From Citrifermentans bemidjiense Bem (GTDB taxonomy: Bacteria; Desulfobacterota; Desulfuromonadia; Geobacterales; Geobacteraceae), in assembly GCF_000020725.1 (NCBI RefSeq), contig NC_011146.1, forward strand, positions 3,223,501 through 3,287,500: DNA of 64,000 bases, given 5' to 3'. Shown here in pieces: positions 26,119 to 50,503 of the stretch (positions are counted from its first letter, which is position 1; every line of letters begins with the position of its first letter). The notes under the pieces were generated by a model. The model made no database searches, was not told the origin of the DNA, and saw only the letters and a list, made by a program, of their open reading frames with translations. A program made the translations under genes and the position numbers.

Positions 26119-26574
26119 TCAGCTTTTGTTGCGGGGGGAACGGTAACCGGCGCAGGTGCCGATCAACTTGTCGTGGATGGCGTCCATCATCTCCTGCTCG
26201 GTGGCTATTCCCGCAGCGGCGTTCAGGTTGAGGGCAAGCGGGAGCAGTCCGAGCAAGAGGTTGCGCATGTTGCCGCACCCTCCTCCTCCCCCCAGCACCT
26301 CGGCGAGCTTGCGCTGCAGCCCCTTGCCGATGGTGAAGCCCACAAGCCCTTGCATGCGGGCCGATACGTTGCCGCAATCGGGGGTGGGGGAGCGGTGGAA
26401 ATCGGCTTTCGCCGAAACTATCTTCAACGTGGCCACGTCGACAACGACTTCGGCCACAACGTCATGGAACTTGTCCTTCAAAAGCGCCGTCAGCTTCGCG
26501 GTGCCGTCATCCTGCTTCAACAGACGATAGGAGATGTCCCTCTGGAAATCCTCCATCGGGTTCAATTCAGCCAT
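26119..26574 (-). CDS. DUF2889-type protein
   Basis: A 151-residue soluble protein. KLTALLKDKFHDVVAEVVVD and the stretch GFTIGKGLQRKLAEVLGG followed by GGCGNMRNLLLGLLP match the layout I know for DUF2889 proteins (where the latter reads like a G-x-R-x-L-GG-x-GC-x-HL motif). Cysteines at GNVSAR-side DCGN, GGCGN and GTCAGYR may bind a ligand. Such proteins are often found next to acyl-CoA and aromatic catabolic genes, but no activity is known. It starts 2 bases after the CoA-transferase beta gene and is the last gene of that operon. Confidence 0.65.
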   Translation of the reverse strand: MAELNPMEDFQRDISYRLLKQDDGTAKLTALLKDKFHDVVAEVVVDVATLKIVSAKADFHRSPTPDCGNVSARMQGLVGFTIGKGLQRKLAEVLGGGGGCGNMRNLLLGLLPLALNLNAAAGIATEQEMMDAIHDKLIGTCAGYRSPRNKS

Positions 26575-26576
26575 TG

Positions 26577-27401
26577 CTACCCTTTGTGCTTCACCTTGGG
26601 AATGAAAATCTGCTCAGGGTCGAGCACACTGTGGATGAAGTGCAGCTCCTCCCTGGTCGGGGGCAGAGTTTCGCCGCTAACCCGCGAGATGTCAAGATCA
26701 AATTGACACATCTCGCGGATTTGCTCGGGGGAGTTACCCCGGTGGCAGGTGTCTAGGTAGATGCGCCCGGTCTCGTCGTCGAAGCGGAAGACGCCGGCCG
26801 TGCTGATGACGGCGGAGGGGCCTCCGCGGTAGGCGGAGCCGTAGAGTTCCTTGCGGTGGACGAAGCTCCCTTCAGGCCATTTCTTCACCCGCCATCCAGG
26901 GCTGGTGATGTAGCTCACCTGTTCGGTGAAGCGGCGCTTCTCGTGCACCATGATAAAGACGGTGCGTCGGGCGAAGGAGTTGATGTCGGGGTTGCCGCCG
27001 GAACCGGTGAGGCGGAGTTCGGGGTCGAGGTAGTTCCCGATGCAGGTGGTGTTCACGTTGCCGTACTCATCGACCTCCGCACCGCCGAGGAAACCTAAGT
27101 CGACGTACCCTCTTTGGGCCACGCTGAAGGCGTCGTAAAGCCCAGAGGAGCGGGAGGCTCCCATCTCGCAGCGCGCGTCGCCTACCGAGGTCGGAATCTG
27201 CGGTGGGCGCCCGTCCAGCGTCCCGGCCTCGAAGATCAACTTCAGGTTGGGGGCGTGGGTTTTCTGGGCCAGCATGATCGCCACCATGGGAAGGCCGGTG
27301 CCGGCGAAGACGATTTCGTTGTCCTTTACCTCGCGCGAGGCGGCGCAGCAGAGAAGATCGGGGAGGCCGTATTCTTCGGGAGTTGCGTAATTGCTTTCCA
27401 T
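26577..27401 (-). CDS. CoA-transferase beta subunit, glutaconate CoA-transferase B type
   Basis: A 274-residue class I CoA-transferase subunit. It shows FAGTGLPMVAIMLAQ, KLIFEAGTLDG with the Glu expected to form the glutamyl-CoA thioester, QRGYVDLGFLGGAEVD and GSGGNPDINSFARRT. With the alpha subunit it should move CoA between an acyl-CoA (acetyl- or succinyl-CoA) and a free acid. Relatives act on glutaconate, 3-oxoadipate and other acids; here the cluster suggests a short- or branched-chain fatty acid, which is inference. It starts one base after the alpha stop, so translation is coupled. Confidence 0.85.
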   Translation of the reverse strand: MESNYATPEEYGLPDLLCCAASREVKDNEIVFAGTGLPMVAIMLAQKTHAPNLKLIFEAGTLDGRPPQIPTSVGDARCEMGASRSSGLYDAFSVAQRGYVDLGFLGGAEVDEYGNVNTTCIGNYLDPELRLTGSGGNPDINSFARRTVFIMVHEKRRFTEQVSYITSPGWRVKKWPEGSFVHRKELYGSAYRGGPSAVISTAGVFRFDDETGRIYLDTCHRGNSPEQIREMCQFDLDISRVSGETLPPTREELHFIHSVLDPEQIFIPKVKHKG

Positions 27402-27402
27402 G

Positions 27403-28365
27403 TCATTGCCCCCTTTTCACGCCGGTGCTGTAGTTGAGCGCGGTATTGGCCTTGAGGTTCAGCATGCGCGGCCAGCCCAGTTTCTCCAGGTAGCTATGGT
27501 GGTCCTGACCGTGGATCCACTCCTTGGCAAAGTCGTCGAACCCTTCCTGGGTCCTGGTCCTGCCGTAGAAGTCCTTGAGGAAGGCTCCGTCCACGTCGTA
27601 GCGCCCGAACATCCCCGTGGGGTGTGCGCCGAAGGGGCATTCGACGATGTAATCGACCTCGAAGCTCGCTATGGTGTTGCGGTCGCTCTCCCGGCGCAGG
27701 TACTCCTCGGGGACAATCTCCTCCGCCATGACAATGGTGATGTCGGCGGCCCGGGCCGCTTCCGGGTCGGAGTAGAACTGGCCGTTCACCCGCACCGTCC
27801 CCTCCTCCCCCACCTGTTGCACGCACATGACCGCCACGTCGACCTTCGCCGCGGGGACCAGCACCTGCTCTCCGGCGCCGTAGAAGGGGTCCTCGGTGAA
27901 GATGTACTTGTGTTTGGGAATCCTTTTGCCGTCCCTGAGGCCCGCTCGTCCCAGCATGTCGTACTCGGGGTTGTGCAGGTCGGTCCCGAGCGAGGTCTGG
28001 GTCGCCGCGTAGGGGGCGCCGGAAGCCGCGGCGGCGAAGCGGAACAACATCTCCGCGTGGCTGTAGTCCTCGACGATGATCTCCTTGTTGCCGACCTTCC
28101 TGGAGAGGTTGGCGCCGTACTTGCCGTAAAGCTCATGGCCCACCCAGCACGACTCCCAGATGTCGACGCAGCCGGCACCGACGAGGAACTCGGTCTGCGG
28201 GCCGCCGTTGACCTCGATCAGGTGCAGCCCCTTGCGCCCCTGGCGGATCAGTTCGAACACCAGCGCGAAGGGGCGGCGCCAGATGGTGAAGCCGGAAAAG
28301 GTGAGGCTGGAGCCGTCCTTGATGATCTCCGCAGCCTGCTGTAAGGTGATGCGCTTGCCAGTCAT
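27403..28365 (-). CDS. CoA-transferase alpha subunit, glutaconate CoA-transferase A type
   Basis: A 320-residue partner of the beta subunit. It has GSSLTFSGFTIWRRPFALVF at the N-terminus, then GAGCVDIWESCWVG and the conserved GTDLHNPEYD region. The frame allows a GTG at 28371 but AGGAGG directly touches it; the ATG at 28365 lies 6 bases from AGGAGG and is chosen. It follows an acyl-CoA dehydrogenase gene after a 62-base gap with a small tandem repeat. Confidence 0.85.
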   Translation of the reverse strand: MTGKRITLQQAAEIIKDGSSLTFSGFTIWRRPFALVFELIRQGRKGLHLIEVNGGPQTEFLVGAGCVDIWESCWVGHELYGKYGANLSRKVGNKEIIVEDYSHAEMLFRFAAAASGAPYAATQTSLGTDLHNPEYDMLGRAGLRDGKRIPKHKYIFTEDPFYGAGEQVLVPAAKVDVAVMCVQQVGEEGTVRVNGQFYSDPEAARAADITIVMAEEIVPEEYLRRESDRNTIASFEVDYIVECPFGAHPTGMFGRYDVDGAFLKDFYGRTRTQEGFDDFAKEWIHGQDHHSYLEKLGWPRMLNLKANTALNYSTGVKRGQ

Positions 28366-28393
28366 AGACACCCTCCTGTTTTCTCAATCAGTC

Positions 28394-28425
28394 GGACCTG
28401 TCTGACCTGTCTGACCTGTCGGACG
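28394..28425. repeat. short tandem repeat, 9-base unit
   Basis: GACCTGTCT is repeated three times (28395-28421, last copy with one change), flanked on both sides by GTCGGAC-like ends. It occupies the spacer between the acyl-CoA dehydrogenase and CoA-transferase genes. It is too short for a CRISPR array. Confidence 0.8.
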
Positions 28426-28427
28426 CT

Positions 28428-29585
<1,158 letters not shown>

Positions 29586-29617
29586 CGATTCCTCCCTTCA
29601 GGTGCAACCCCAGGTCA

Positions 29618-30439
29618 TCACGCCAAAGCGACTATCGGCACATCGTTTTCCTGCCCCCACTGTTGCCAATTTGCCGCGCTTTTTTCGGCGAAAGCGGCGC
29701 GGTACCCTTCGTCGCCGCCGATTCCAAGCGTCTCCTCGATCCTTTTCTTGAAGTGCGGCTCAAGCGCCGCAACGGCAACCCAGCCGTCGCTCGCTGCGTA
29801 GAGGTTGTACTCAGGCAATCCCCCGCCAAGAGTGGCGCCGGGGACGGTGCAGCCGTAGCGAAGCGGCTCGGCCATGGCCTCCGCTGCGGAGGAAAGGGCC
29901 ACCTCCAGGTACCCGCTCCCCAGCCCGCGCTCGCGTCCCAGCAATAGCGCCAGCGCGCCGCTCAAGGTCTGCTCGGCGCCGGCCATGTCCGCCAAAAGGG
30001 TGCGCGGCATGTGGGGCGGGGTCAAAAGGCCCAGGGACGCCTGGTAGGTCAGGTCGTGCCCCGCCTCGTTCTCCCGAGGGGCGGGGTAGCCAACGATGGC
30101 CACCTGACAAAGGACGGGGTGCTTCTCGTGCAAGCTCTTCCAGCCAAGCCCCCGCCGCTCCAGGGCTGCCGGACGGGTGGCGGTAATGAGGAGATCCGCC
30201 TCGGAGAGAAGAGCGTCAAGGCGTGCCAGGTCCGCGGGCGCCTTCAGGTCGAGCCGCACGACGCTCTGCCCGTCCGCCATGTCCTGGTACCACGCTGCCT
30301 GGTAGCTCTGCATCGGGTCGCCAGTTGGGGGCTCGACCTTGGTCACGCTCGCTCCCATCGCCGTGAGCCGCCTAGCCGCCGCCGGCCCCGGCAGGTTCAC
30401 CGCCAGGTTCACCACCTTTATCCCCGCGAGCATTTTCAT
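29618..30439 (-). CDS. short CaiB/BaiF-family protein, alpha-methylacyl-CoA racemase-like
   Basis: A 273-residue member of the family III CoA-transferases, well below the usual 360-400. It contains GIKVVNLAVNLPGPAAARRL and the ERRGLGW stretch. Two residues correspond to the catalytic pair of alpha-methylacyl-CoA racemase: His128 in AGHDLTYQASLG and Asp151 in LLADMAGAEQ. Racemases of this type invert 2-methylacyl-CoA, which would fit 2-methylbutyryl-CoA from isoleucine. The missing C-terminal third makes function less certain. ATG at 30439 follows GGGGAG; the ORF extends six codons further. Confidence 0.72.
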   Translation of the reverse strand: MKMLAGIKVVNLAVNLPGPAAARRLTAMGASVTKVEPPTGDPMQSYQAAWYQDMADGQSVVRLDLKAPADLARLDALLSEADLLITATRPAALERRGLGWKSLHEKHPVLCQVAIVGYPAPRENEAGHDLTYQASLGLLTPPHMPRTLLADMAGAEQTLSGALALLLGRERGLGSGYLEVALSSAAEAMAEPLRYGCTVPGATLGGGLPEYNLYAASDGWVAVAALEPHFKKRIEETLGIGGDEGYRAAFAEKSAANWQQWGQENDVPIVALA

Positions 30440-30515
30440 CCTTCTCCCCTTTATCACTGGTTCATCGTGAAAATTGCGTGGAAAGCCGCTCTTTGTCCCC
30501 CTCCCCGCCCCCCTA

Positions 30516-31046
30516 TCACTTCTCGATCCCGGTCCGGGCCGGCACGCCTGCCTGGTAGTAATGCTTCACCTCGACCATCTCGGTGACCAGGTCAGCTGCC
30601 TCGATGACCCGGGGGTCGGCGCTTCTTCCCGTCAGCACCAGCTCCACCTGCTCGGGCCTTAGCTTGATGAGGTCAAGAATGTCCTCGACGGTGATGAGGC
30701 CGAACCAGGCCGCACCGTTGATTTCGTCAAGGATGACCAGGTCGTATTCGCCGCCGGTCAGGGTCTCGCGAGCGAGGTTCAGCGTTCCCCGGGCTATGGC
30801 TACGTCCTGCGGGTCCAGCCGGTCCTTATAGATCCAGCAGTCCCGCCCGGTCTGATGGATGGTGAGCAGCGGCGCCAGCCGCTCGGCGGCTATATGCTCG
30901 CCGTACTCCCCTCCCCCTTTGATGAACTGGACCATGCAGACCTTGAGCCCCCGCCCGACCGCCCGGAGCGCCAGCCCCAAGGCGGCGGTGGTCTTTCCCT
31001 TGCCGTTGCCGGTGTAGACCTGTACCTTCCCTTCCGTCAGGCTCAT
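30516..31046 (-). CDS. cobO: cob(I)alamin adenosyltransferase, CobO/BtuR type
   Basis: A 176-residue protein with the CobA/CobO P loop GNGKGKTTAALGLALRA, VQFIKGG, LDEINGAAWFGL and LVLTGRSADPRVIEAADLV. It transfers the adenosyl group of ATP to cob(I)alamin or cob(I)yrinate, producing adenosylcobalamin. Its ATG overlaps the etfA stop as ATGA, so it is translated within the beta-oxidation operon rather than with corrin synthesis genes. The plausible customer is IcmF (41429-44677), which needs adenosylcobalamin. An overlapping upstream extension to 31277 is out of frame with etfA and rejected. Confidence 0.92.
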   Translation of the reverse strand: MSLTEGKVQVYTGNGKGKTTAALGLALRAVGRGLKVCMVQFIKGGGEYGEHIAAERLAPLLTIHQTGRDCWIYKDRLDPQDVAIARGTLNLARETLTGGEYDLVILDEINGAAWFGLITVEDILDLIKLRPEQVELVLTGRSADPRVIEAADLVTEMVEVKHYYQAGVPARTGIEK

Positions 31047-31960
31047 CTGGCGCACCTTGCCGTCATCGCCGGCACGAACTGCAACACGTCTGCCACGATC
31101 AGGACGTCGGCTATCTCGCCTATGGGCGCATCCTTGTCCTTGTTGATGGCGACTATGAAGTCCGCCATTTTCATCCCCGCCAGGTGCTGAATCGCGCCGC
31201 TGATGCCGCAGGCGACGTAGAGCTTCGGGCTGACGGTCTGGCCGGTGGTCCCGACTTGGTGGCTGTGGGGCGCCCATCCTGCGTCGACGACGGGACGGCT
31301 CGCGCCCAGTTCCCCACCGAGCGCCTTGGCAAGCTGCGCGATCACCTGGACGTTCTCTTTCTTCCCCACGCCGCGCCCGGCACTGACGATCACCTCGGCC
31401 CTGGTGAGATCGACGTCCTTTTGCTCAGCAGCCTCATACCCTACGAATTCGGTCTTTCCGGCTGGGTCCGCCACGTCAATCCCCTCAACCTGGGGCGCAC
31501 CCTGCGGCTCACCCTGGGGGGAGAAGGCACCGGCCTGGATGGTGACCACGGTCCGCGCGCTCTTGGGGGCGACGGTCCGGCGCAGCTTGGCGTTGCAGCA
31601 GGTCACTTCAAATTTTCCGTCGGGAAGCCCCACCACCTCGGACACCTGGCCGATGCGGAGAGCGGCGGCCACGCGAGGCGCCAGGTCCCAGCCGTAGGAC
31701 GAGTGCACGAATACGATGTAGTCGGGGTTCTCCTTGGCGACCGCCTCCAGCACCAGCTTCTTGTGCAGGTCGGGGTTGTACTCGCCGTACTTGGCTACGT
31801 CAGCCAGGTATAGCTTGCCGGCGAACTTCGGGAGATCGGCTGGGCTTCCCACCAGCACCATGGCGCTCTCGGCGCCTAACAGGCCGGCAAAGGCCTGCAG
31901 TTCATAGGTGGTCTCCAGCAGTTTCCCCTGCCTGTATTCCGCGATAAGCAACGCTTTCAT
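31043..31960 (-). CDS. etfA: electron transfer flavoprotein alpha subunit
   Basis: 305 residues starting MKALLIAEYRQGKL. The C-terminal FAD-binding half shows VIVSAGRGVGKKENV, GASRPVVDAGWAPHSHQVGTTGQTVSP, YVACGISGAIQHLAGM and INKDKDAPI, all typical of EtfA. It receives electrons from the acyl-CoA dehydrogenases and hands them to the membrane oxidoreductase encoded upstream. AAAGGAG sits before the ATG at 31960, in preference to the ORF start at 31984. It follows etfB by 13 bases. Confidence 0.95.
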   Translation of the reverse strand: MKALLIAEYRQGKLLETTYELQAFAGLLGAESAMVLVGSPADLPKFAGKLYLADVAKYGEYNPDLHKKLVLEAVAKENPDYIVFVHSSYGWDLAPRVAAALRIGQVSEVVGLPDGKFEVTCCNAKLRRTVAPKSARTVVTIQAGAFSPQGEPQGAPQVEGIDVADPAGKTEFVGYEAAEQKDVDLTRAEVIVSAGRGVGKKENVQVIAQLAKALGGELGASRPVVDAGWAPHSHQVGTTGQTVSPKLYVACGISGAIQHLAGMKMADFIVAINKDKDAPIGEIADVLIVADVLQFVPAMTARCAR

Positions 31961-31973: not shown

Positions 31974-32756
31974 TCAGGCCGCACGCAACACGGTGGTCTT
32001 TTCCTTGAGAATCCCCATCAGTTTGTCGAGCTGGTCGTTCACCTCGCCCTCGATGACGATGCCGCCTCCCCTCTTAGCGGGAGGATACATGCCGCCGGTC
32101 CCGGTGACCTCGGCTTCCTTCAGGAGCTCCGAGACAGCTTGGACGAGGATTTCCTTTTTCTTCGCCTTCATGATGTTGGGAAGCGTCGGGTACCGGGGGG
32201 TGTTGAGCCCCAGCTGGCAGGTGACTACAGCGGGGAGCTTCAGCTTAACAACCCCTTTGCTGCCGCCTTCCAGTTCGCGTTTCGCCGTGATCACACCCGC
32301 GTCGAAAGCAAAGCCGACCAGGGTGGTGGCGCAGCCAAAGCCCAGCAACTCGGCGACGGTGACCCCGACCTGCGCGGAGCCGCGGTCCTGGGACTGCATC
32401 CCGGTGAAGACCACGTCGTACCCCTGCCCCGCAGCGTGCCCCGCTATGACCGAGGCGACCTGCCAGGGGTCCTTCTGGTAGTACTTGTCATCCTTCACGT
32501 GAACCGCCCGGTCGGCCCCCATCGCCAGCGCCTTCTTCAGCGCCTCGACCACGCGGTCCGGCCCCATGGAGAGGACCGTTATCTCAGGCTCGCCCCCCAA
32601 CTGTTCTTTCAACTGAACGGCCTGCTCCACCGCATATTCGTCGTACTCGTTCATCCGGAAAGCGAGGTCCGCCTCGTCGTACCAGGTACCTTCGCTGTTG
32701 AGCTTGAACCGCGATTCCATGTCAGGAACCTGCTTGATGCATACCAGTATCTTCAT
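31974..32756 (-). CDS. etfB: electron transfer flavoprotein beta subunit
   Basis: 260 residues: MKILVCIKQVPDMESRF, then MNEYDEYAVEQAVQLKEQ and MGPDRVVEALKKALAMGADRA, the adenine-nucleotide-binding signature, and FTGMQSQDRGSAQVG. The reading frame stays open upstream to 33566 through the neighbouring gene, but the ATG at 32756 has a GGAGGAGG ribosome-binding site and gives the standard size. Part of the etfB-etfA-cobO translationally linked block. Confidence 0.95.
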   Translation of the reverse strand: MKILVCIKQVPDMESRFKLNSEGTWYDEADLAFRMNEYDEYAVEQAVQLKEQLGGEPEITVLSMGPDRVVEALKKALAMGADRAVHVKDDKYYQKDPWQVASVIAGHAAGQGYDVVFTGMQSQDRGSAQVGVTVAELLGFGCATTLVGFAFDAGVITAKRELEGGSKGVVKLKLPAVVTCQLGLNTPRYPTLPNIMKAKKKEILVQAVSELLKEAEVTGTGGMYPPAKRGGGIVIEGEVNDQLDKLMGILKEKTTVLRAA

Positions 32757-32815: not shown

Positions 32816-34960
32816 TCAGGCAGCGTCCTTGCCGTTTACACCCGAAATCTCTGTGGTTTCTCCCGCTTTTTCTGTCTCTGCCGAAACCGGTTCCGCCCCT
32901 GCCGCCGAAGCTTCCGTAACCTGCGGAATCCCTGTGGGCAAGAAGGTGTCGAGCACCGCGGAGAGGTCGGCTGCCGGCTGCAGCCTCTCCACGACGATCT
33001 CGGCCAGGTCCCGAGCCTTCAGCTTCCCTTCGCACTCGCCGGTCTTGATGCCGTCTTCGAACATGGTGAGGCAGAAGGGGCAGTTGGATACCAGGACGGG
33101 TGCCCCGGTCGCTTCCGCCATGTGGACCCTCTTCACGTTGATCCTGTTCCCCAGTTTCTCCTCGGCGAGGATCCTGCCCCCCCCTGCGCCGCAGCAAAAG
33201 CTTTCCTTTTCCGATTTCTCCATCTCGTTGATGCGCCCGCCCGCGGCGTGCAGTATGTCGCGCGGCTGCTGGATGATGTCCTGGTAGCGCCCGAGATAGC
33301 AGGAATCGTGGTAGGTGTAGTCGAACTGCCGCTCGTCGAGGACAAGGGTCCCCTCCTTGAGCAGGCGGTCGATGAAGACCGTGTAGTGCTCCACCTGCGC
33401 ATCCAGCCCCAGGTCCCGGTAGTCGCGCCCGAGCGTGTTCATGCAGTGCGGGCAGGTGGTGACGATCCGCTTGATGCCGTACCCGTTGATCAGTTCGATG
33501 TTCTCCTGGGCCGCCATCTGGTACAGGTACTCGTTGCCGAGCTTCCTGACCGGCTCCCCGCAGCACTTCTCCTCCTTGCCGAGGATGCCAACCTTGATCC
33601 CCGCAGCGTTGCAGATCTTAACGAAGCTTTTGGCGACCTCCTGGTTTCGCTTGTCGAAGGAGGCGTAGCAGCCGACGAAGTACAGCACGTCCACGTCAGC
33701 CCCACCCTCCGACAGGATCTGCACATCCAGCCCCTCGGTCCAATCCCCGCGGCCGGCGTAGGCGAGGCCGAAGGGGTTGCCGTTCACCTCGACGTTGTTG
33801 ACGGCGACCATGACCTCCTCGCCGGGGAACTCCCCCTGCATCAGGACCAGGTTGCGGCGCATCTCGATGATCTTGTTCACATGCTCCACATCCGCCGGGC
33901 AGATCTCCTGGCAGGCGCGGCAGGTGGTGCAGGACCAGAGCGCGTCGTTGCCGACCGTCTCGATCAGGCTCTTGTCGGGGTCGCCGAAGGCCAACTCGCC
34001 TACCTGCTGCACCACCTTCATCGGGGAGAGCGGCTTCTCGGTGTTGTGGGCCGGGCAGCGGTCCTGGCATCTCTTGCAGGAGGTGCAGGCGTCGGCGTCG
34101 AAGATGTCCTTCCAGGAGAATTCCGAAACCTTCTCCACGCCGAACTGCTCCACCCCCTCCTCTTCCAGGTTTATGGTGGCGATGGACCCCTTGGGGCGGA
34201 GGTCGGTGAAGAGGTAGTTGGCCGGCGTGGTGATCAAGTGACGGAATTTGCTCCAGGGAATAGAGACGATGAACCCGAGGACCAGCAGGAAATGACCCCA
34301 CCACCAGAGCGTGTGCAGCTGCCGCAGGGAAACCTCGTCCTGGGCGGAGAACTGGTTGGCCACGAACATCCCGATGGGGGACCAGCGCGCCAGCTCAGGA
34401 TTCATCCGCAGTTCGGTCGCGGCGATGCGCACACCTTCCGCCAGGAATCCGGTGAAGATGATCGCGGTCAGGAGGCCATGCATCAGGTAATCGTCGCGGG
34501 TGATCTTGAGCCCCTCCGGCCGGTAGACAAAGCGGCGCAGCATCAGGCCCAAAAGCATGAGGAAGGCGGCAGCGCCTGCCAGGTCGAGCGCCAGGGAATA
34601 GAACTTATAGAAGGAGCCCTTGAGGATCACCACATTGAAGAGCGGCTGGGTCAGGTCGGCCTGGAGCATCACCAGCAGCGTCCCGATGAAGAGGGTGACA
34701 AAGCCCCAGAAGAAGAGGCCGTGGGGAAAGCCGGGACCGCTGACGCGCAGCACCTTCGCCTGGCCGAACAGGTTCTTGAGCAGGAAGGGGATACGTTCCC
34801 CCAGGGCGTCGAGCCGGTTCAGTTCCTTCCCCTGGCGGTACACCTCGACCCGCTGGTAGATGCCGTAACAGCAGGCGGCGACGGCGACCAGCGTCAGCAG
34901 GTACATGGGGAGCACGACCCCGTGTCCGACGTTCCAATAGATTTCCCTGGTAGCTTCCAT
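32816..34960 (-). CDS. membrane FeS/heme-b ETF:menaquinone oxidoreductase (EMO/EtfD type)
   Basis: A 714-residue protein. Residues 1-230 hold about six hydrophobic spans with a NarI-like heme-b layout (HGVVLPMYLLTLVAV, PHGLFFWGFVTLFIGTLLV, LHTLWWWGHFLLVLGF). Two 4Fe-4S motifs follow (CTSCKRCQDRCP and CTTCRACQEICP), then two CCG domains with CCGEPVRK and FCCGAGGGR, which bind noncubane clusters. The Ala/Glu-rich tail is odd. This architecture matches the EMO-type enzymes that link ETF to menaquinone in anaerobic fatty-acid and aromatic degraders. ATG at 34960 follows AGGAG; a longer ORF start at 35044 is rejected. Directly upstream of etfBA. Confidence 0.9.
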   Translation of the reverse strand: MEATREIYWNVGHGVVLPMYLLTLVAVAACCYGIYQRVEVYRQGKELNRLDALGERIPFLLKNLFGQAKVLRVSGPGFPHGLFFWGFVTLFIGTLLVMLQADLTQPLFNVVILKGSFYKFYSLALDLAGAAAFLMLLGLMLRRFVYRPEGLKITRDDYLMHGLLTAIIFTGFLAEGVRIAATELRMNPELARWSPIGMFVANQFSAQDEVSLRQLHTLWWWGHFLLVLGFIVSIPWSKFRHLITTPANYLFTDLRPKGSIATINLEEEGVEQFGVEKVSEFSWKDIFDADACTSCKRCQDRCPAHNTEKPLSPMKVVQQVGELAFGDPDKSLIETVGNDALWSCTTCRACQEICPADVEHVNKIIEMRRNLVLMQGEFPGEEVMVAVNNVEVNGNPFGLAYAGRGDWTEGLDVQILSEGGADVDVLYFVGCYASFDKRNQEVAKSFVKICNAAGIKVGILGKEEKCCGEPVRKLGNEYLYQMAAQENIELINGYGIKRIVTTCPHCMNTLGRDYRDLGLDAQVEHYTVFIDRLLKEGTLVLDERQFDYTYHDSCYLGRYQDIIQQPRDILHAAGGRINEMEKSEKESFCCGAGGGRILAEEKLGNRINVKRVHMAEATGAPVLVSNCPFCLTMFEDGIKTGECEGKLKARDLAEIVVERLQPAADLSAVLDTFLPTGIPQVTEASAAGAEPVSAETEKAGETTEISGVNGKDAA

Positions 34961-39182: not shown

Positions 39183-39211
39183 AATATATATGTCGTTTAC
39201 GTGCATGTCAA
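39183..39211 (-). promoter_or_regulatory. promoter and probable MerR operator of the beta-oxidation operon
   Basis: Minus strand TTGACA (39206-39211), exactly 17 bases, TATATT (39183-39188). The spacer carries TGCACGTAAACGACA. Plus-strand reading GTTTACGTGCATGTCAAGC is an imperfect inverted repeat that closely matches the site upstream of the CoA-transferase operon (50325-50353) and the CTTTACGTAAAG palindrome before the MerR gene. Confidence 0.7.
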
Positions 39212-39434: not shown

Positions 39435-39534
39435 TAAAGGCAATACTCAAAAGGGGGGAAGCTCCGCTGAGCCTCCCCCCACTTTAACTGCAACTGCTGA
39501 TTCTCTGTGATGGACACAGTGCGAAGGGATCCTG

Positions 39535-40701: not shown

Positions 40702-41230
40702 CCGTCACCCCCCAATCGTTGTAGTAGGCAATTTCATTCAAATCCTTGCGCGGGCGCTGTTTGGGATCCTGGTCGGGATACCCGAGCGGGGTCACGCCGA
40801 TGACCCTGATACCGGCCGGAATGGCCAGCCCCGCCTTGATGGCGGGCTCATCATACCATCCCATCCAGCAGGTGCCAAGACCTAGGCCGTGCGCCGCGAG
40901 ACAGATATGTTCGAAGGCGATGGCTGCGTCGGCTACGTAGTACTCGATGCCGTTCTCTAAGCCCGATTGAGTCGGGTCGGCGCAGACGACAATGACCACC
41001 GGCGCCTGGGCCAGCGCCTTCTTCCCAGGATTATCGTCCGAAAAGCCGTCGAGGAGCGCCTTTTTCCTCTCTGTAGAGTTCAGAACCAGAAAGCGCCAGC
41101 ACTGCATGTTCTTCCAGGAAGGGGCAAGCCTGGCTGCATCCAGCACCTGCCCCACCTTCTCCCATTCGACCGGAGTGTCCTTGTACTTCCGGATGCTCCT
41201 TCTGCCGTTGATTGCCTCGAATACGTCCAT
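40646..41230 (-). CDS. nitroreductase-family FMN protein
   Basis: 194 residues: AINGRRSIRKYKDTPVE (FMN phosphate contact RRSIR), ARLAPSWKNMQCWRFLVL, and GLGTCWMGWYDEPAIKAGL near the C-terminal half, followed by IRVIGVTPLGYPDQDPKQRP. These are standard for the family of NAD(P)H-dependent FMN reductases acting on nitro compounds, quinones or flavins. The last 18 residues are extra and overlap the next gene. AAGGAGAACGC precedes the ATG. Confidence 0.9.
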   Translation of the reverse strand: MDVFEAINGRRSIRKYKDTPVEWEKVGQVLDAARLAPSWKNMQCWRFLVLNSTERKKALLDGFSDDNPGKKALAQAPVVIVVCADPTQSGLENGIEYYVADAAIAFEHICLAAHGLGLGTCWMGWYDEPAIKAGLAIPAGIRVIGVTPLGYPDQDPKQRPRKDLNEIAYYNDWGVTDAEQAGIATENHQAATGT

Positions 41231-41428: not shown

Positions 41429-44400
41429 CTACATGTTCCGCCGGTACTCCCCCCCCACCTGGTAGAGCGCGCGGGTGATCTGCCCCAAGGATGCGACCTT
41501 TACCGTCTCCATCAGCTCCCCGAAGATGTTGCCGCCGGAGACAGCTACCTCCTGGAGGCGCTTCAGGGCCAGCGGCGCCTTTTCCTTGTTCCGGTCCTGG
41601 AAGGCGCGCAGATTCTTGATCTGCTGTTCCTTCTCTTCCGCGGTTGCGCGCGCAAGTTCTCCCGGGACCTGGTACCCCTCCTCCCCGGCGCGGGGATTGA
41701 GGAAGGTGTTGACCCCGACGATGGGGAGCTCGCCGGAGTGCTTTTTGTGCTCGTAAAGCATCGATTCGTCCTGGATCTTGCTCCGCTGGTACTGGGTCTC
41801 CATGGCCCCCAGCACCCCTCCGCGCTGGTCGATCTTCTCGAACTCGGCGAGCACCGCCTCCTCCACCAGGTCGGTCAGCTCGTCGATGATGAACGCGCCC
41901 TGGAGCGGGTTCTCGTTTCTGGCGAGCCCCAGTTCCTTGGTGATGATCATCTGCACCGCCATGGCCCGCCGCACCGACTCCTCGGTCGGGGTCGTCACCG
42001 CCTCGTCGTAGGCGTTTGTGTGCAGCGAGTTGCAGTTGTCGTAGATGGCCATGAGCGCCTGCAGCGTGGTGCGGATGTCGTTGAAGTCCATCTCCTGCGC
42101 ATGCAGCGACCGGCCGCTGGTCTGGATGTGGTACTTGAGCTTCTGGCTCCGCTCGTTGGCGCCATACTTCTCCCGCATCACCACCGCCCAGATCCTCCGC
42201 GCCACCCGCCCGATCACCGTGTATTCCGGATCGAGTCCGTTGGAGAAGAAGTAGGAGAGGTTAGGCGCGAAGTCGTCGATATGCATCCCGCGCGAGAGGT
42301 AGTACTCCACGTAGGTGAAACCGTTGGAGAGGGTGAAGGCGAGCTGCGAGATGGGGTTCGCCCCCGCTTCGGCGATGTGGTAGCCGCTGATGGAAACGGA
42401 GTAGTAGTTCCGCACCTGCTGCTCGATGAAGTACTGCTGGATGTCCCCCATCATCTTCAGGGCAAATTCGGTGGAGAAGATGCAGGTATTCTGCCCCTGG
42501 TCCTCCTTGAGGATGTCCGCCTGCACCGTGCCGCGCACCGTCTGCAGCGTGCAGGACTTTATCTCCTGGTACTCCGTCGCCGACGGCTCGCGCCCCTTTT
42601 CCGTCCTGAACTTCTCCACCTGCTGCTCGATGGCGGCGTTGAAGAACATGGCAAGCATCATCGGCGCGGGGCCGTTGATGGTGATGGAAACACTGGTGGA
42701 AGGGGCGCAGAGGTCGAATCCGGCGTAGAGCTTCGCTACGTCCTCGACGGTGCAGACCGAGACCCCGCTCTCCCCCACCTTGCCGTAGACGTCGGGCGGG
42801 TAATCCGGGTCCTCGCCGTACAGGGTCACGCTGTCGAAAGCGGTCGAGAGCCTCTTGGCGCCGTCGTCCTGGCAAAGGTAATGGAAGCGGCGGTTGGTCC
42901 GCTCCGGTGTCCCCTCGCCTGCGAACTGGCGCTTCGGATCCTCCTCCGCCCTTTTGAAGGGGAAGACCCCCGCGGTGTAGGGGAAGTACCCGGGGAGGTT
43001 CTCCTTCAGGCTCCATTTGACGATCTCCCCCCATTCCTCGTAATCCGGAACGCAGACCCTGGGGATGCGGGAGCCGGAGAGGGAGGTGGTGAAAAGCTCG
43101 GTCCTTATTTCCTTGTCGCGCACTCGTGTCACCAGTGCGTCCAGCTTATAGCTCGCCTTCAGCTCAGGCCACCCCTCGACAATGCGCCTGGGCTCCTCCT
43201 GCAGCTCCGCATCGGTGCTCTGAATCAGCTGGTCCAGCTCCGCTTGCGCCGCATCTCCCTGTACCTGCGCCCTTGCCCCCTTGAGCTGGAACAGGCTCCG
43301 CGCGATCTTGGACTGGCTCTCCACGTTCTTTCGGTAGCTGCGCGCCGTCTGTACGATCTCCCCCAGGTAATGGATCCGGTCCGGCGGGATGATGTACTGC
43401 TTCAGGCTGTCCCCTTCGGGTGCGCTCAATTGCGAGCGCCACTTGAGCTCCTTCTTCTCGTTGAAGCGGTTCAGGACGGCGAGATAGAGGACGTTGGTGC
43501 CGGGATCGTTGAACTGCGAGGCGATGGTGCCGAAGATCGGGAGCTCCTCGTCAGTCACCTCGAAGAGGTTTCGGTTGCGGCGGTACTGCTTGCGGACGTT
43601 TCTAAGCGCGTCCTCGGCCCCTTTCCTTTCGAACTTGTTGAGCGCGACCACGTCGGCGAAGTCGAGCATGTCGATCTTCTCCAGCTGCGTCGGCGCTCCG
43701 AACTCGCAGGTCATGACGTAGAGCGAGACGTCGCAGATCTCGACCACCCCCGCATCCCCCTGGCCGATCCCGGAGGTCTCCACGATAATCAGGTCGAACC
43801 CTGCCGCGCGCACCACGTCGATGGCGTCGCTGATGGCCGCGGAGAGCTCCGAGCGGGAGTCGCGCGTGGCAAGCGAGCGCATGTAGACCCGGTCCGTGTT
43901 GATGGAGTTCATCCTGATGCGGTCGCCCAGAAGCGCCCCGCCGGTCCGCTGGCGCGAAGGGTCGACGGCGAGGATGGCCACGCTTTTCTCCGGGAAGTCC
44001 CTGATGAAGCGGCGCACCAGTTCGTCGGTGAGCGAGCTCTTGCCGGCGCCGCCGGTCCCCGTGATGCCCAGGGTCGGCACCTCCCGCCCCATGCCGCGGA
44101 TGGTCTCGCGCACCAGCCCATACCCCTCGTTATGATCGTGGACCGCCTGCTCGGCAAGCGTGATCAGGGCGTTCACGGCGCGCACATCCCGTTCTTTGAG
44201 CCGCTCGATCTCCGCTTGCAGGTCGCGCTCAACGTGGAAGTCGCAAAGCTCCAGCATGTGGTTGATCATCCCCTGCAGCCCCATGCGGCGGCCGTCCTCG
44301 GGGGAGAAGATCTTGCTGACCCCGTAGCTCTCGATCTCCTTTATCTCTTCCGGGACGATCACCCCGCCCCCTCCGCCGAAGACCTTCACCTGCTCCGCGC

Positions 44401-44677
44401 CCCGCTCCTTCAGTAGATCGCGAATGTACTTGAAGAAGGGGACGTGTCCCCCCTGGTAGCAGCTGACCGCGATCCCCTGGGCGTCCTCCTGGATGGCGGC
44501 GCTCACGATCGCCTCCACGGAGCGGTTGTGCCCCAGGTGGATCACCTCGGCCCCCGAGGCCTGGAGCATCCGTCGGATGATGTTGGTGGAAGCGTCATGG
44601 CCGTCGAAGAGGCTCGTGGCCGTGACGAAACGGATCTTGTTCTTGGATTTGTAGGGTGCCGCGGCTGCGGTGTGCAT
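41429..44677 (-). CDS. icmF: fused isobutyryl-CoA mutase IcmF
   Basis: 1082 residues in the IcmF order. An N-terminal cobalamin-binding domain (about 10-150) has SLFDGHDAS for the base-off B12 His, and GGGGGVI. A MeaB-like G-protein chaperone follows, with Walker [10 protein letters not shown] (about 207-215), [15 protein letters not shown] and [11 protein letters not shown]. The large acyl-CoA mutase TIM barrel (about 560-1082) carries [12 protein letters not shown], which distinguishes IcmF from methylmalonyl-CoA mutase, and a C-terminal [16 protein letters not shown]. It interconverts isobutyryl- and n-butyryl-CoA (some also isovaleryl/pivalyl-CoA) with adenosylcobalamin. Product butyryl-CoA would enter the nearby beta-oxidation operon. 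Confidence 0.95.
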
Positions 44678-44714
44678 GGTGTCTCTCCTTTTCGTTTGAA
44701 TCTTTCCGAGCGGC

Positions 44715-45287
44715 TCAGGGCTTCAGGGTGAACTCCCAGGCGCACCAGAACTCCTCAGGATGCTCGTCCGGCGGGCAGGCGATGCAATTCGTCTGGATCC
44801 GCGGGTCGATGGTGCTGGCGAAGCCGGAGTATTCGACGATACCGACGGATTTGCAGGGATGGTCCGGGAGCCCCTTGCGCTTTCTGGCGGACTGGACCCG
44901 GCAGTCGATCATGCGGAAGACGGCCCGGGTCTCCGTCACCTCCAGGCATTGCTGCAGGTTGAGCCGGGCGTAAAAACGGTGCTTCAGGCACTCCACCAGT
45001 GCGGGAATCCCCCCGCCCGGTTTCAGCCCCAGCCGCTCCATGATCCGCTTGGCCTCGATGACGGTGAAGAGCCTCCAGGCGTCGGTGTCGATATCGACCG
45101 CCACGTCCATGCCGAATTTCTTTTCCAGCGACTGGAACCAGACTCCGTCGTGGGCCAGCCAGTTCTTGGCGTCGTCGGTGATTATCCGGACCAGTTCCTC
45201 CTTGCTGAGCGAGTAAAGGAGCTGGATCCCCTCGTCGCCGGCAGCGTTTTCCGGTTCCGTTTTCTGCAAAGCGGTTTGCGTCGTCAT
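44715..45287 (-). CDS. DUF6125-like conserved protein
   Basis: 190 residues. The N-terminal helix pair [22 protein letters not shown] and [18 protein letters not shown], the cysteines in [19 protein letters not shown], and a [21 protein letters not shown] ending (in part) resemble what I know as DUF6125. Function is unknown; a C-x2-C plus nearby Cys could bind metal. GTG at 45293 overlaps the ribosome-binding site, whereas ATG at 45287 has AGGAGG five bases away and is chosen. It lies 37 bases upstream of icmF, so it may assist the mutase or its substrate supply (inference). Confidence 0.65.
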
Positions 45288-45310
45288 GATCACCTCCTGG
45301 TGTTTTTTCT

Positions 45311-45426: not shown

Positions 45427-45431
45427 AGTTG

Positions 45432-47417: not shown

Positions 47418-47430
47418 GCTGTCCCCTCCT

Positions 47431-47739: not shown

Positions 47740-47779
47740 GGCTCTCCTCCTTGGTTAAGGTTTGACACATTCCCCTACA

Positions 47780-48544
47780 TCACGGCCTTGCATAGCCGAA
47801 TTTCATTGAAAGCAGCTCGCCGCTTAAAAGCAGCGAGGGTATGATCTCTTCTTCCAGCCGGGAGCCCAAAAACCGCACCGACGGCCCCAAAAGGGTGAGC
47901 GCGCCGACCACCTTGCCGGCATAGTCCCTTACCGCGACGGCCACGGTAATGACCCCCTCACCCATGCCACCGCAGTCGACGGCGACTCCCTTTTCCCTAA
48001 TCGACTCCAGTTCGCGCCGCAAATCGGCCAGGTCCGGAAAGGCCGACCGGCCGCGGCGCCAGCTCTTGCCGATCTTTTCCAATAGGTCCCAGGAATCTAT
48101 GGCGCGCATCACCTTGCCGGCGGCGTTGTTGAAGAAGGGGAACCTCCTCCCCACCAGCGGCTCGCCCTTCCCCCCGGCCTCGACGCAGGCCACGTCGACG
48201 AAAAGCACCTCCTCTCCTTTCAGGATGGCCATGTACACCGCCTCTTTGTGCCTTCGCGCCAGGCTTTCCATGACCGGGCGCACTTCCCGCACGATGCTGC
48301 CGTAAAGCGCCTCCACCTTTCCCCGGGAGTGCCCTTTGCCCGCCTTCGGCAAGAGCCTCTTCCCCGCCTCCTGCTGCTCCAGGCTTTCCAAAAGGCGCCT
48401 GGTCCGATACCTGCTGATACCGACTCTCCGCGCGAGCGCGGAGAGGGAGCACTCTTTTCCCTCGATGGCGAGCGCCTCCAGAAGCTCCACGGCCTTTTCC
48501 ATCCGCTGCGGCGGGTTTCCCTCTTTGGCCCGCTTTTTTTTCAT
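47780..48544 (-). CDS. IclR-family transcriptional regulator
   Basis: 254 residues. An N-terminal winged helix-turn-helix (about 14-75: MEKAVELLEALAIEGKECSL, ALARRVGISRYRTRRLLESL) precedes an IclR effector domain (GEEVLFVDVACVEAGGKGEP, NNAAGKVMRAI, GGMGEGVITVAVAVRDYAGK). It lies within the CoA-transferase-symporter operon (19 bases after the CoA-transferase stop), so it probably controls acetate uptake and activation, sensing a short carboxylate or acyl-CoA. The operator is not identifiable here. Confidence 0.9.
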   Translation of the reverse strand: MKKKRAKEGNPPQRMEKAVELLEALAIEGKECSLSALARRVGISRYRTRRLLESLEQQEAGKRLLPKAGKGHSRGKVEALYGSIVREVRPVMESLARRHKEAVYMAILKGEEVLFVDVACVEAGGKGEPLVGRRFPFFNNAAGKVMRAIDSWDLLEKIGKSWRRGRSAFPDLADLRRELESIREKGVAVDCGGMGEGVITVAVAVRDYAGKVVGALTLLGPSVRFLGSRLEEEIIPSLLLSGELLSMKFGYARP

Positions 48545-48563
48545 GGTTTCCCCCCGCTAGTAC

Positions 48564-50123
48564 CTAGTCCCAGTTGGGGATCTTCATGGTCCCCTTTTCC
48601 GCCAGGCTCTGCTGCATCTTGAAGACCTTGAAGAGCATGTGGGGCTCGTGCCCGACGTTTTGCTCGAAGCACTCCCGCTGCGCCCGCTCGTAGTATTCCT
48701 GCATGATCGGCTTGTACTCGGGGTGTACGCATTTGGAGATGATCTGCTGAGCCCGCTCTCTCGGGCAGAGTCCGCGCAGGTCGGCGAGTCCCTGCTCGGT
48801 CACCAGCACGTCGAGGTCGTGCTCGGTATGGTCGACGTGGGGGACCATGGGGACCACGCAGGTAATGCCGTTTGCGTCGGTCTTCGACGGCCGGGTGGAG
48901 GGGGTGTGCATGATGGAGAGGTAGGCGTTTCTCAGGAAGTCCCCGGAGCCGCCGATACCGTTGATCATCCTGGTGCCCCCGACCAGTGTCGAGTTGGCGT
49001 GGCCGTAGATGTCGAATTCCACCGGGGTGTTCATGGCGATGACCCCCAGGCGGCGGATCGGCTCGGGGTTGTTGCTGATCTGCATGGGGCGCAGCACCAC
49101 TTTTCCGGTGTAGAAATCCCAGTTGTCGTAGAGGCGCTGGAAGCCCCCCTCGGAGAGCGAGAGCGAGGTTGAGGAGGCGAAGTCGAGCTTGCCGGAGTCG
49201 AAGAAGTCCAGCATGGTGTCCTGGATCACCTCGGTCCAGACCTGGACGTTGCTGAACGGTCCCTGCACCAGCCCCCCCACCACCGCGTTGGCTATGTTGC
49301 CGACCCCCGACTGCAGCGGGAGCAGGTTTTTCGGCAGGCGCCCCGCCTTCACCTCGAACTGGAAGAAGTCGATGATATGCGCCGCGATCTGCTCCGACAC
49401 GGCGTCGGGAGCGCTCAGGGCGCGCCCCCGGTCGGGCTTTTTGGATTCCACGATGGCGATGATCTTGTCCGGATCGCACGGGACGTAAGGTGAGCCGATC
49501 CGGTCGTCTACGCGGCTGATCAGGTACGGTTTCTTGTAGGGAGGGCGCTCGGTCATAACGATGTCGTGGAGCCCTTCGAAGGAGGGGATCGCCGTGTTGA
49601 TCTCGATGATGAGCCGGTCCGAGTGCTGGATCACCTCGGTAGCGCAGCCGATGGAGCCGCCGAGGATGATGGAGCCGTCTTCAGTGATGCCGCTTGCCTC
49701 GATGAGCCCGAGATCGAACCCCCCTCCCCTTTCCTTGGTGTAGAAGCCGTAGGCGAGATCCTGGGCGTAGAGCGAGAGGTGCTTGTCTCCCATGCGCACG
49801 CCGCCGTTATTCACCTGCTTTTGCACCACATTCCCGGTCTGGTAGGGCCAGCGTTTGTCGGTCATGGAGAGCGATGCCCAGCGGTCCTCGATCTCGGCGC
49901 CGATGGAGGCGCCGATGAAGAGGTTGAACCGCATCTTCCCCTGCAGGTTGTTTTTCTCTACGTAGTCCGCCAGCGCCTCGGGCACCACCTTGGGATAGCC
50001 GACCGGCGTGAACCCTGACCACCCAAGGTCCATGCCGTTTTTGAAGAACGGGATGGTATCCTCGGCGCTCATGATCCTTTGGTGCAGACTCTTCTTCCTG
50101 ATCCTCTGCTGCAGCTCGCTCAT
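48564..50123 (-). CDS. succinyl-CoA:acetate CoA-transferase (acetyl-CoA hydrolase family)
   Basis: 519 residues of the class I acetyl-CoA hydrolase/transferase family: NLFIGASIGAEIEDRW, LQSGVGNIANAVVGGL (CoA-binding loop) and VWTEVIQDTMLDFF, where the Glu should form the covalent CoA ester. C-terminal blocks are GGSGDFLRNAYLS and DVLVTEQGLADLRGL. In Geobacter such enzymes convert acetate plus succinyl-CoA into acetyl-CoA plus succinate, activating acetate and closing the TCA cycle. Its operon with IclR, DUF485 and ActP fits this. A 200-base leader lies upstream. Confidence 0.92.
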   Translation of the reverse strand: MSELQQRIRKKSLHQRIMSAEDTIPFFKNGMDLGWSGFTPVGYPKVVPEALADYVEKNNLQGKMRFNLFIGASIGAEIEDRWASLSMTDKRWPYQTGNVVQKQVNNGGVRMGDKHLSLYAQDLAYGFYTKERGGGFDLGLIEASGITEDGSIILGGSIGCATEVIQHSDRLIIEINTAIPSFEGLHDIVMTERPPYKKPYLISRVDDRIGSPYVPCDPDKIIAIVESKKPDRGRALSAPDAVSEQIAAHIIDFFQFEVKAGRLPKNLLPLQSGVGNIANAVVGGLVQGPFSNVQVWTEVIQDTMLDFFDSGKLDFASSTSLSLSEGGFQRLYDNWDFYTGKVVLRPMQISNNPEPIRRLGVIAMNTPVEFDIYGHANSTLVGGTRMINGIGGSGDFLRNAYLSIMHTPSTRPSKTDANGITCVVPMVPHVDHTEHDLDVLVTEQGLADLRGLCPRERAQQIISKCVHPEYKPIMQEYYERAQRECFEQNVGHEPHMLFKVFKMQQSLAEKGTMKIPNWD

Positions 50124-50496: not shown

Positions 50497-50503
50497 GTAA
50501 ACC

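What the first reader, a model, noticed from the sequence alone, without database searches (positions are those of the whole stretch)
26119..50123. Single-strand catabolic island linking a B12 mutase, its cofactor enzyme, beta-oxidation and a dedicated quinone entry point
IcmF, a CobO-type adenosyltransferase translated from within the ETF operon (ATGA overlap with etfA), two acyl-CoA dehydrogenases, hydratase, hydroxyacyl-CoA dehydrogenase, thiolase, a GctAB-type CoA-transferase, EtfAB and an EMO-type membrane oxidoreductase lie in one 24-kb run, next to acetate uptake and activation genes. Known: IcmF needs adenosylcobalamin and makes n-butyryl-CoA from isobutyryl-CoA. Inferred: anaerobic oxidation of isobutyrate/valine-type or other branched acids to acetyl-CoA with menaquinone reduction.
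Basis: partly seen in the sequence, partly recalled or inferred. Interest (0 to 1): 0.72.

Follow-up and report, generated by a model that had tools for sequence, protein, structure and literature searches.

The report
Isobutyrate-burning gene island with shared switch

Summary
The genes named are present on the minus strand at 26119-50123, and the cobO start overlaps the etfA stop (ATGA). The island is conserved in Geobacterales: icmF occurs in 67 and gctB orthologs in 55 of 141 genomes of the order, together in 54. The genome is very probably Geobacter (Citrifermentans) bemidjiensis, a known isobutyrate, butyrate and valerate user. Best explanation: isobutyrate is activated by CoA transfer, isomerised by IcmF to butyryl-CoA, beta-oxidised to two acetyl-CoA, and electrons pass through ETF and an EMO-type protein to menaquinone. 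'Other branched acids' is not supported. It is probably not one transcription unit: a terminator-like hairpin and a conserved promoter separate icmF from the beta-oxidation operon. New here: a cysteine-free MerR-family regulator (50504-50908, +), outside the finding, and an inverted-repeat operator over the -35 boxes of the scpC and thl operons and next to merR. The exact operator occurs 112 times in 141 genomes against 2 hits of a reversed control; at least 98 sites lie within 25 kb of genes of this cluster. A DUF6125 protein with five invariant cysteines precedes icmF. The pathway is known; the regulon and DUF6125 are the interesting parts. Nothing was tested at the bench.

The parts
50504..50908 (+). 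MerR-family regulator, 134 aa, no cysteine, divergent from scpC
   Evidence: Pfam PF13411, PF00376, PF09278; no Cys; homologs divergent beside the cluster in 14 of 19 upstream regions
50486..50501 (.). operator-like inverted repeat TTTACGT-N2-AGGTAAA ending 2 bases before the merR ATG
50325..50353 (-). promoter with operator (TTGACATGAACGTAAAG...TATTTT), 230 bases before scpC
48564..50123 (-). scpC/ato: succinyl-CoA:acetate CoA-transferase (probably ato-2, Gbem_2843)
   Evidence: NF053853 589.9 bits over cut-off 500, TIGR03458 614.8 below 658.7; four full-length Ato copies in the genome and four ato genes in PMC2996986
47780..48544 (-). IclR-family regulator
   Evidence: PF01614, PF09339
47431..47739 (-). 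DUF485 protein, small partner of ActP
   Evidence: PF04341
45432..47417 (-). ActP/MctC-type acetate or monocarboxylate symporter
   Evidence: 561 bits to MctC (cut-off 670) and 527 to ActP (cut-off 750), below both; sodium/solute symporter superfamily over cut-off
44715..45287 (-). DUF6125 protein, five invariant cysteines, directly upstream of icmF
   Evidence: PF19620 297 bits; the five cysteines in all 79 distinct sequences compared
41429..44677 (-). icmF: fused isobutyryl-CoA mutase/G-protein
   Evidence: NF045497 1919 bits; Phe585, Gln729, His27, Walker A
40646..41230 (-). nitroreductase-family flavoprotein, role unknown
   Evidence: PF00881; not BluB by score
39535..40701 (-). M24 metallopeptidase/creatinase-like protein, role unknown
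   Evidence: PF00557, PF01321; in 82 of 141 genomes at 63% identity or more (one 38% match dropped)
39453..39480 (-). terminator-like hairpin (12 pairs) followed by TTTT
39183..39211 (-). promoter with operator TTGACATGCACGTAAACGACATATATATT before thl
37976..39151 (-). thl: acetyl-CoA acetyltransferase
   Evidence: TIGR01930 429 bits over cut-off
37102..37947 (-). hbd: 3-hydroxybutyryl-CoA dehydrogenase
   Evidence: NF005715 433 bits over cut-off 420
36298..37080 (-). crt: short-chain enoyl-CoA hydratase
   Evidence: NF004475 323 bits, below cut-off 394
35107..36246 (-). acd1: short-chain acyl-CoA dehydrogenase, catalytic Glu363
32816..34960 (-). EMO-type ETF:menaquinone oxidoreductase-like membrane Fe-S protein
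   Evidence: NarI-like domain, 4Fe-4S domains, two CCG stretches; best PDB match 9ojn
31974..32756 (-). etfB
31043..31960 (-). etfA
30516..31046 (-). cobO-type corrinoid adenosyltransferase, ATGA overlap with etfA
   Evidence: NF004637 and TIGR00708 over cut-off
29618..30439 (-). short family-III CoA-transferase fold protein, racemase-like (273 aa; His128, Asp151, Glu227)
   Evidence: PF02515; best PDB matches alpha-methylacyl-CoA racemases; positions; 273-275 aa in 7 relatives
28428..29585 (-). acd2: second acyl-CoA dehydrogenase, catalytic Glu366
27403..28365 (-). gctA-like CoA-transferase subunit A
   Evidence: 1poi_A E 1.3e-52
26577..27401 (-). gctB-like CoA-transferase subunit B, catalytic Glu58 kept
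   Evidence: 1poi_B E 2.5e-46
26119..26574 (-). DUF2889 protein, role unknown
   Evidence: PF11136

Best explanation
This is an isobutyrate/butyrate oxidation island, co-regulated with acetate uptake and activation. Isobutyrate enters (ActP/MctC-type symporter or diffusion; inferred) and is activated by the GctAB-like CoA-transferase, using acetyl-CoA made later in the pathway, or by ScpC with succinyl-CoA (inferred). IcmF, loaded with adenosylcobalamin made by the co-encoded CobO enzyme, isomerises isobutyryl-CoA to butyryl-CoA (family chemistry, conserved residues). Acd1, Crt, Hbd and Thl convert it to two acetyl-CoA (standard pathway). Acd1 electrons go via EtfAB to the EMO-type protein and into menaquinone (family knowledge). 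The MerR protein at 50504-50908 most likely represses two operons, scpC-iclR-DUF485-actP-DUF6125-icmF(-nitroR-M24) and thl-...-gctB, and its own gene, by binding inverted repeats TTKACRT-N2-AYGTMAA over the -35 boxes, with relief by an acyl-CoA or acid of the pathway (operator and linkage shown by sequence; operon extents, regulator assignment, sign and effector inferred).
For: Complete gene set. IcmF 1919 bits; substrate residues Phe585/Gln729 aligned to the same residues of C. metallidurans IcmF. GctB keeps the transferase Glu58. EMO-type domains beside etfBA. Gene order conserved in relatives; icmF with gctB in 54 of 141 genomes. Recorded donors of G. bemidjiensis are butyrate, isobutyrate, valerate (PMC2996986); the genome has four full-length Ato copies at 564, 934, 3272 and 4434 kb, in step with Gbem_0468, 0795, 2843, 3897 of that paper. 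Operator: in this genome 3 sites at up to 1 mismatch, two of them before thl and scpC; exact order-wide pattern 112 sites in 65 of 141 genomes against 2 control hits; at least 98 of 112 within 25 kb of icmF, DUF6125, gctB or M24, and 12 of the other 14 beside merR, acyl-CoA, ETF, acetate-uptake or icmF genes. MerR homologs are divergent beside the cluster in 14 of 19 upstream regions. A -10 box of 5 of 6 or better is found at 36 of 72 sites against 1.5% of random positions, 21 of the 36 with a 17-base spacer, which fits repression better than MerR-type activation.
Against: No expression, growth or enzyme data were available. The acid-activating enzyme is not proven. acd2, the racemase-like protein, DUF6125, the nitroreductase, M24 and DUF2889 have no assigned role. 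cobO is missing from 9 of 14 comparable clusters. 7 of 20 relatives do not have the beta-oxidation genes in line behind icmF. 9 of 67 icmF genomes have no exact operator and 7 of 65 operator genomes have no icmF match (one of these, G120, shows an icmF fragment). An IclR gene inside the cluster and a histidine kinase gene beside merR could be the real regulators. Geotalea NIT-SL11 did not grow on isobutyrate or butyrate (PMC9961858), but whether it has icmF was not checked.
Confidence: 0.8

Rival explanations
1. The island mainly serves 2-methylbutyrate or valerate: the racemase-like protein and acd2 would process 2-methylbutyryl-CoA, and IcmF would interconvert branched and linear C5 acyl-CoAs.
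For: Racemase-like protein with the catalytic His, Asp and Glu kept next to a second dehydrogenase; valerate is a recorded donor.
Against: The racemase-like gene is not seen in several conserved clusters (L116, L120-L122, L130); the curated model that hbd passes is 3-hydroxybutyryl-CoA dehydrogenase, a C4 name; 2-methylbutyrate is not among the short-chain donors named in the passage seen.
Confidence: 0.15
2. IcmF works in reverse, making isobutyryl-CoA from butyryl-CoA to prime branched fatty acids; the beta-oxidation operon is for butyrate alone.
For: The reaction is reversible (family knowledge); icmF and thl are probably in different transcription units.
Against: The thl and scpC-icmF stretches share an operator and their order is conserved; the organism uses isobutyrate as a donor.
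Confidence: 0.06
3. The island serves isovalerate or pivalate, since IcmF can act on isovaleryl- and pivalyl-CoA.
For: IcmF acts on these substrates (PMC10481361, passage).
Against: No isovaleryl-type dehydrogenase arrangement (rule recalled) and no carboxylase or HMG-CoA lyase among the 21 genes; isovalerate is not a recorded donor of this species in the passage seen. The rest of the genome was not searched for those genes.
Confidence: 0.05
4. The operator is recognised by another regulator (the IclR protein or a histidine kinase system), not by the MerR protein.
For: iclR (47780-48544) and a PAS histidine kinase gene (50959-52599) are close by. Five of 19 upstream regions have no MerR match, L195 with a site among them (some regions are cut at contig ends).
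Against: No iclR match in L193, L198, L200, L202 and L204, where MerR and the element remain; merR with the element but no icmF match is seen beside acd1 in two genomes (L223, L228).
Confidence: 0.12

Closest known systems
Syntrophothermus lipocalidus isobutyryl-CoA mutase cluster (Slip_0757-0760)
   Same: Mutase, cobalamin adenosyltransferase and MeaB-like protein encoded together; isobutyrate isomerised to butyrate and beta-oxidised (PMC5017805, passages).
   Different: There the mutase domains and MeaB-like protein are separate; here they are fused, and ETF, EMO, CoA-transferase and beta-oxidation genes are in the same island.
IcmF of Cupriavidus metallidurans (PDB 4xc6 and others)
   Same: Fused isobutyryl-CoA mutase; the 301-residue substrate-domain stretch aligns end to end without a gap and has the same Phe and Gln.
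   Different: Different lineage; its gene neighbourhood was not examined here.
icmF plus beta-oxidation clusters of Bacillaceae and Desulfobacterales (L009, L010, L012, L025, L080)
   Same: icmF next to thl, hbd and acd matches, in two cases with an EMO-like match (32-34%).
   Different: Different gene order; the exact operator was not found in 77 icmF loci L009-L085.
EMO, the ETF:(methyl)menaquinone oxidoreductase family (recalled; no paper found by one search)
   Same: Cytochrome-b-like (NarI) domain, Fe-S and CCG domains, gene next to etfBA.
   Different: Activity not shown.
LiuR, MerR-family repressor of branched-chain amino acid use in Proteobacteria (PMC3223726, PMC5343134; passages)
   Same: MerR family, catabolic acyl-CoA operons, probably a repressor.
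   Different: Targets here are acetate activation, icmF and butyrate oxidation; the LiuR motif could not be compared.

Membership tests
IcmF (fused isobutyryl-CoA mutase) | Score over the curated equivalog cut-off | tested here: met
   1919 bits against 1500, profile 1-1076 of 1076
IcmF (fused isobutyryl-CoA mutase) | Phe/Gln substrate pair, B12 histidine, Walker A | tested here: met
   Phe585 and Gln729 aligned to the same residues of 4xc6; His27, GTGGAGKSS; residue roles recalled
IcmF (fused isobutyryl-CoA mutase) | Isobutyryl-CoA mutase activity | not testable with these tools
   needs an enzyme assay
EMO (ETF:menaquinone oxidoreductase) | NarI-like membrane domain, 4Fe-4S and CCG domains, gene next to etfAB (definition recalled) | tested here: met
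   gap of 59 bases to etfB
EMO (ETF:menaquinone oxidoreductase) | Menaquinone reduction by ETF | not testable with these tools
   needs an assay
GctAB-type CoA-transferase | Catalytic Glu in subunit B | tested here: met
   Glu58 aligned to Glu of 1poi_B; role recalled
AibAB (GctAB homologs acting as decarboxylase; name recalled) | Closer to AibAB than to GctAB, Glu lost | tested here: not met
   1poi_B E 2.5e-46 against 4.9e-17 for the best of the 5mzw-5n03 entries; Glu kept
Alpha-methylacyl-CoA racemase | Catalytic His, Asp, Glu | tested here: met
   aligned columns; positions; roles recalled
Alpha-methylacyl-CoA racemase | Full length (about 360 aa, as 1x74 and 2g04) | tested here: not met
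   273 aa; 273-275 aa in 7 relatives
CobO/CobA corrinoid adenosyltransferase | Over curated cut-offs | tested here: met
   NF004637 189.6 against 185; TIGR00708 171.8 against 167.75
BluB (lower-ligand synthesis) | Over TIGR02476 cut-off | tested here: not met
   74 bits against 150; BluB 2isj 45 bits against 170 for nitroreductase 4dn2
LiuR (MerR family) | MerR DNA-binding domain | tested here: met
LiuR (MerR family) | Regulon of branched-chain amino acid (liu) genes, LiuR motif | tested here: inconclusive
   sites found lie at scpC/actP/icmF, thl and other acyl-CoA loci; liu genes were not searched; motif source not held
Isovaleryl-CoA dehydrogenase | Catalytic Glu at the isovaleryl-type position | tested here: not met
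   both dehydrogenases carry IYEGTNE; position rule recalled

The most novel reading that the evidence does not exclude
Geobacterales use a MerR-family, cysteine-free, acyl-CoA-responsive repressor with its own 16-bp inverted-repeat operator to switch on acetate activation, B12-dependent isobutyrate isomerisation and butyrate oxidation together. DUF6125, with five invariant cysteines, is a metal or Fe-S protein of short-chain acyl-CoA catabolism that works beside, but not only with, IcmF.
Probability: 0.5. Interest if true: 0.5.

Novelty: new member of a known kind. Interest (0 to 1): 0.42.

Why it matters
It names a testable gene set for isobutyrate oxidation by metal-reducing bacteria of contaminated subsurface sites; the G. 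bemidjiensis genome paper lists isobutyrate as a donor, while the words 'mutase' and 'MerR' do not occur in its held main text. The operator gives a simple sequence marker of this catabolic cluster across an order of bacteria, and it offers a regulator and an unknown conserved protein family (DUF6125) for direct tests.

Tried and rejected
Considered and rejected: GctAB as AibAB-type decarboxylase (Glu kept); nitroreductase as BluB; one single 24-kb transcript; DUF6125 as an IcmF-specific partner (171 of 395 phylum genomes; other neighbours and copies away from icmF). Led nowhere: Rfam scan at gathering threshold (0 matches), tRNA scan (0), papers on DUF6125/PF19620 (0), on EMO by name (0), on IcmF with Geobacter (0), on MerR with Geobacter and acyl-CoA dehydrogenase (2 listed, not on this subject by title and abstract start). 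No structure of DUF6125 was obtained.

Limits: the motif was found by eye in the thl upstream regions and then counted, so the thl sites are not independent of its discovery; the scpC, merR and other order-wide sites are. Fisher tests ignore relatedness. The 20 downstream and 19 upstream regions were picked for contig length and diversity, not at random, and some are cut at contig ends. Several locus counts were read off the printed tables; the thl, MerR and cysteine counts were recounted. Two of the 112 operator sites (L229, L234) and the third site in this genome (C1:2246814) had no recognised target.

Full report
WHAT IS THERE. The window is bases 3223501-3287500 of a single 4,615,150-base contig. 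21 genes from scpC (50123) down to a DUF2889 gene (26119) are on the minus strand. cobO starts at 31046 inside the etfA stop (gap -4).

ORGANISM. No tool named it. The size matches Geobacter bemidjiensis Bem (recalled). A check fits: the genome has four full-length Ato-type CoA-transferases, at 564, 934, 3272 and 4434 kb, besides four weak partial matches, and the genome paper lists four, Gbem_0468, 0795, 2843 and 3897 (PMC2996986, passage); the paper calls 3897 a duplicate of 2843, and here the closest paralog of the window's copy (70%) is the one at 4434 kb. The paper lists butyrate, isobutyrate and valerate as known donors (passage); I saw its abstract and passages, not the whole text.

CONSERVATION. 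In 141 genomes of the order, icmF (75% identity or more) is in 67, DUF6125 in 65, the gctB ortholog in 55 and the M24 ortholog in 82. Dropped before counting: five genomes with only a second, 42-43% identical fused mutase, one 43% gctB match and one 38% M24 match. icmF and gctB occur together in 54; DUF6125 and icmF in 60, with DUF6125 directly upstream of icmF in 52. In 20 relatives chosen for contig length and diversity, icmF ... thl-hbd-crt-acd1 is kept in 13 and extends to acd2-gctA-gctB in 10. Of 19 upstream regions, 14 have actP before DUF6125 and 8 have scpC, one of them a partial hit. cobO is in 5 of 14 comparable clusters (window, L115, L116, L123, L126; L126 shows no etfBA match). 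A second cobO, 67% identical, lies beside a MeaB-like and a B12-binding mutase segment at 3.11 Mb, so each mutase system here has an adenosyltransferase gene nearby.

ENZYMES. IcmF residues 560-860 align end to end with C. metallidurans IcmF, without a gap; Phe585 (RQFAGEG) and Gln729 fall on the same residues there, and on Tyr and Arg of human methylmalonyl-CoA mutase (roles recalled). IcmF is known to act on isobutyryl-CoA and also isovaleryl/pivalyl-CoA (PMC10481361, passage). Both dehydrogenases have IYEGTNE, the short-chain/isobutyryl arrangement (recalled), so an isovalerate route is not supported by this island. GctB keeps Glu58 and is far closer to glutaconate CoA-transferase 1poi than to the 5mzw-5n03 entries, recalled as the decarboxylase AibAB. 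The racemase-like protein keeps His, Asp and Glu but has only 273 residues, 273-275 in seven relatives. The EMO-like protein has the NarI-like, 4Fe-4S and CCG domains.

REGULATION. The run is probably not one unit. After M24 there is a 12-pair hairpin with TTTT (39480-39453), and before thl a promoter TTGACA-17-TATATT (39211-39183). That scan found 5 promoter-like sites (shuffles 3.4, sd 1.9) and 16 terminator-like sites (14.8, sd 4.2), so the support is conservation: the same spot in the 12 relatives extracted has TTGAC-N-T-NN-ACGTAAAC with a -10-like box, and 18 of 22 Geobacterales-type loci with a thl start have a site (up to 1 mismatch) within 100 bases upstream; L006, L007, L146 and L148 do not. 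Sites also precede scpC, DUF485/actP, DUF6125 or icmF in other loci. In the whole own genome the pattern with up to 1 mismatch has 3 sites: before thl, before scpC, and one without a recognised target (control 1). The strict inverted repeat TTKACNTNNANGTMAA has 5 sites: those two, one next to the merR start, one in the first codons of an ORF that looks like fabI (recalled, no search), and one elsewhere (10 strand hits against 4 for the reversed control). Across 141 genomes the exact pattern TTGACWTNNACGTAAAC has 112 sites in 65 genomes against 2 reversed-control hits. 58 of the 65 have icmF and 7 have no icmF match (one of them, G120, shows a fragment); 9 icmF genomes lack an exact site. 85 sites are within 25 kb of icmF and at least 98 within 25 kb of icmF, DUF6125, gctB or M24. 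Of the other 14, 12 are beside merR, acyl-CoA, ETF, acetate-uptake or icmF matches, some at only 30-40% identity, and 2 have no recognised target. 77 icmF loci L009-L085, mostly of other lineages, have none.

THE REGULATOR. A whole-genome MerR scan gave 6 matches, one at 50540-50731 in the window: an intact 134-residue MerR protein, 50504-50908 on the plus strand, divergent from scpC, without cysteine, so it is unlikely to be a cysteine-type metal sensor. Homologs at 57-98% identity lie in held loci of relatives, in 14 of the 19 upstream regions, each divergent from DUF6125. At 72 distinct sites (up to 1 mismatch) the best -10 box with 4 of 6 matches is 17 bases from the -35 in 47 and 18 in 9 (ties favour 17-18). 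With 5 of 6 or better, 36 of 72 sites qualify against 1.5% of random positions, 21 of them at 17. MerR activators usually work on 19-20 (recalled), so repression is more likely. LiuR, a MerR-family repressor of branched-chain amino acid use, is the nearest known idea (PMC3223726, PMC5343134, passages); its motif paper is not held. A paralog (71%) lies at 1.53 Mb.

DUF6125. Pfam PF19620, in 171 of 395 genomes of the phylum (drawn evenly) and 0 of 14 control genomes. In 94 rows, 79 of them distinct, five cysteines (C131, C147, C170, C173, C184, numbered from the GTG start) are invariant. In Geobacterales it also has copies near other CoA-transferase, symporter and acyl-CoA genes away from icmF. 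In 30 phylum-wide loci with short flanks, 6 show a match to another protein of this cluster beside it and 24 do not, so its wider role is open. No paper in the library names it. Metal binding is my inference.

VERDICT. An isobutyrate/butyrate oxidation island of a known kind, compare Syntrophothermus lipocalidus (PMC5017805, passages), very probably in a species already known to use isobutyrate. Shown by sequence: gene content, catalytic residues, synteny, operator. Inferred: substrate in the cell, acid activation, electron path, operon extents, regulator assignment, its sign and effector. What adds interest is the order-wide operator with its MerR gene and the unknown DUF6125.

Noticed in passing
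G053, G043, G064, G055, G041, G052, G035, G023, and a partial copy in G044: A second fused mutase, 42-44% identical to IcmF, in some Geobacterales genomes; not found in this genome. Substrate unknown.
   Followed up: no
window 44715-45287: DUF6125 with five invariant cysteines, widespread in the phylum, function unknown; two-domain forms of about 350 aa in G213, G274 and G318.
   Followed up: partly
window 29618-30439: Short (273 aa) racemase-like family-III CoA-transferase fold, 273-275 aa in seven relatives.
   Followed up: partly
L187 (G000:C1:3108000-3118000): Second cobO (67% identical) beside a MeaB-like and a B12-binding mutase segment.
   Followed up: partly
L221 (G000:C1:1526000-1542000): MerR paralog (71%) with a further etfBA pair a few kb away.
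   Followed up: partly
window 39535-41230: M24 lies within 3 kb downstream of icmF in 60 of 67 icmF genomes, and a nitroreductase match near icmF in 15 of 20 relatives, without an obvious role; M24 also occurs in 18 genomes without icmF.
   Followed up: partly
window 26119-26574: DUF2889 gene at the end of the operon, seen in 3 of the 10 relatives whose cluster reaches gctB.
   Followed up: no
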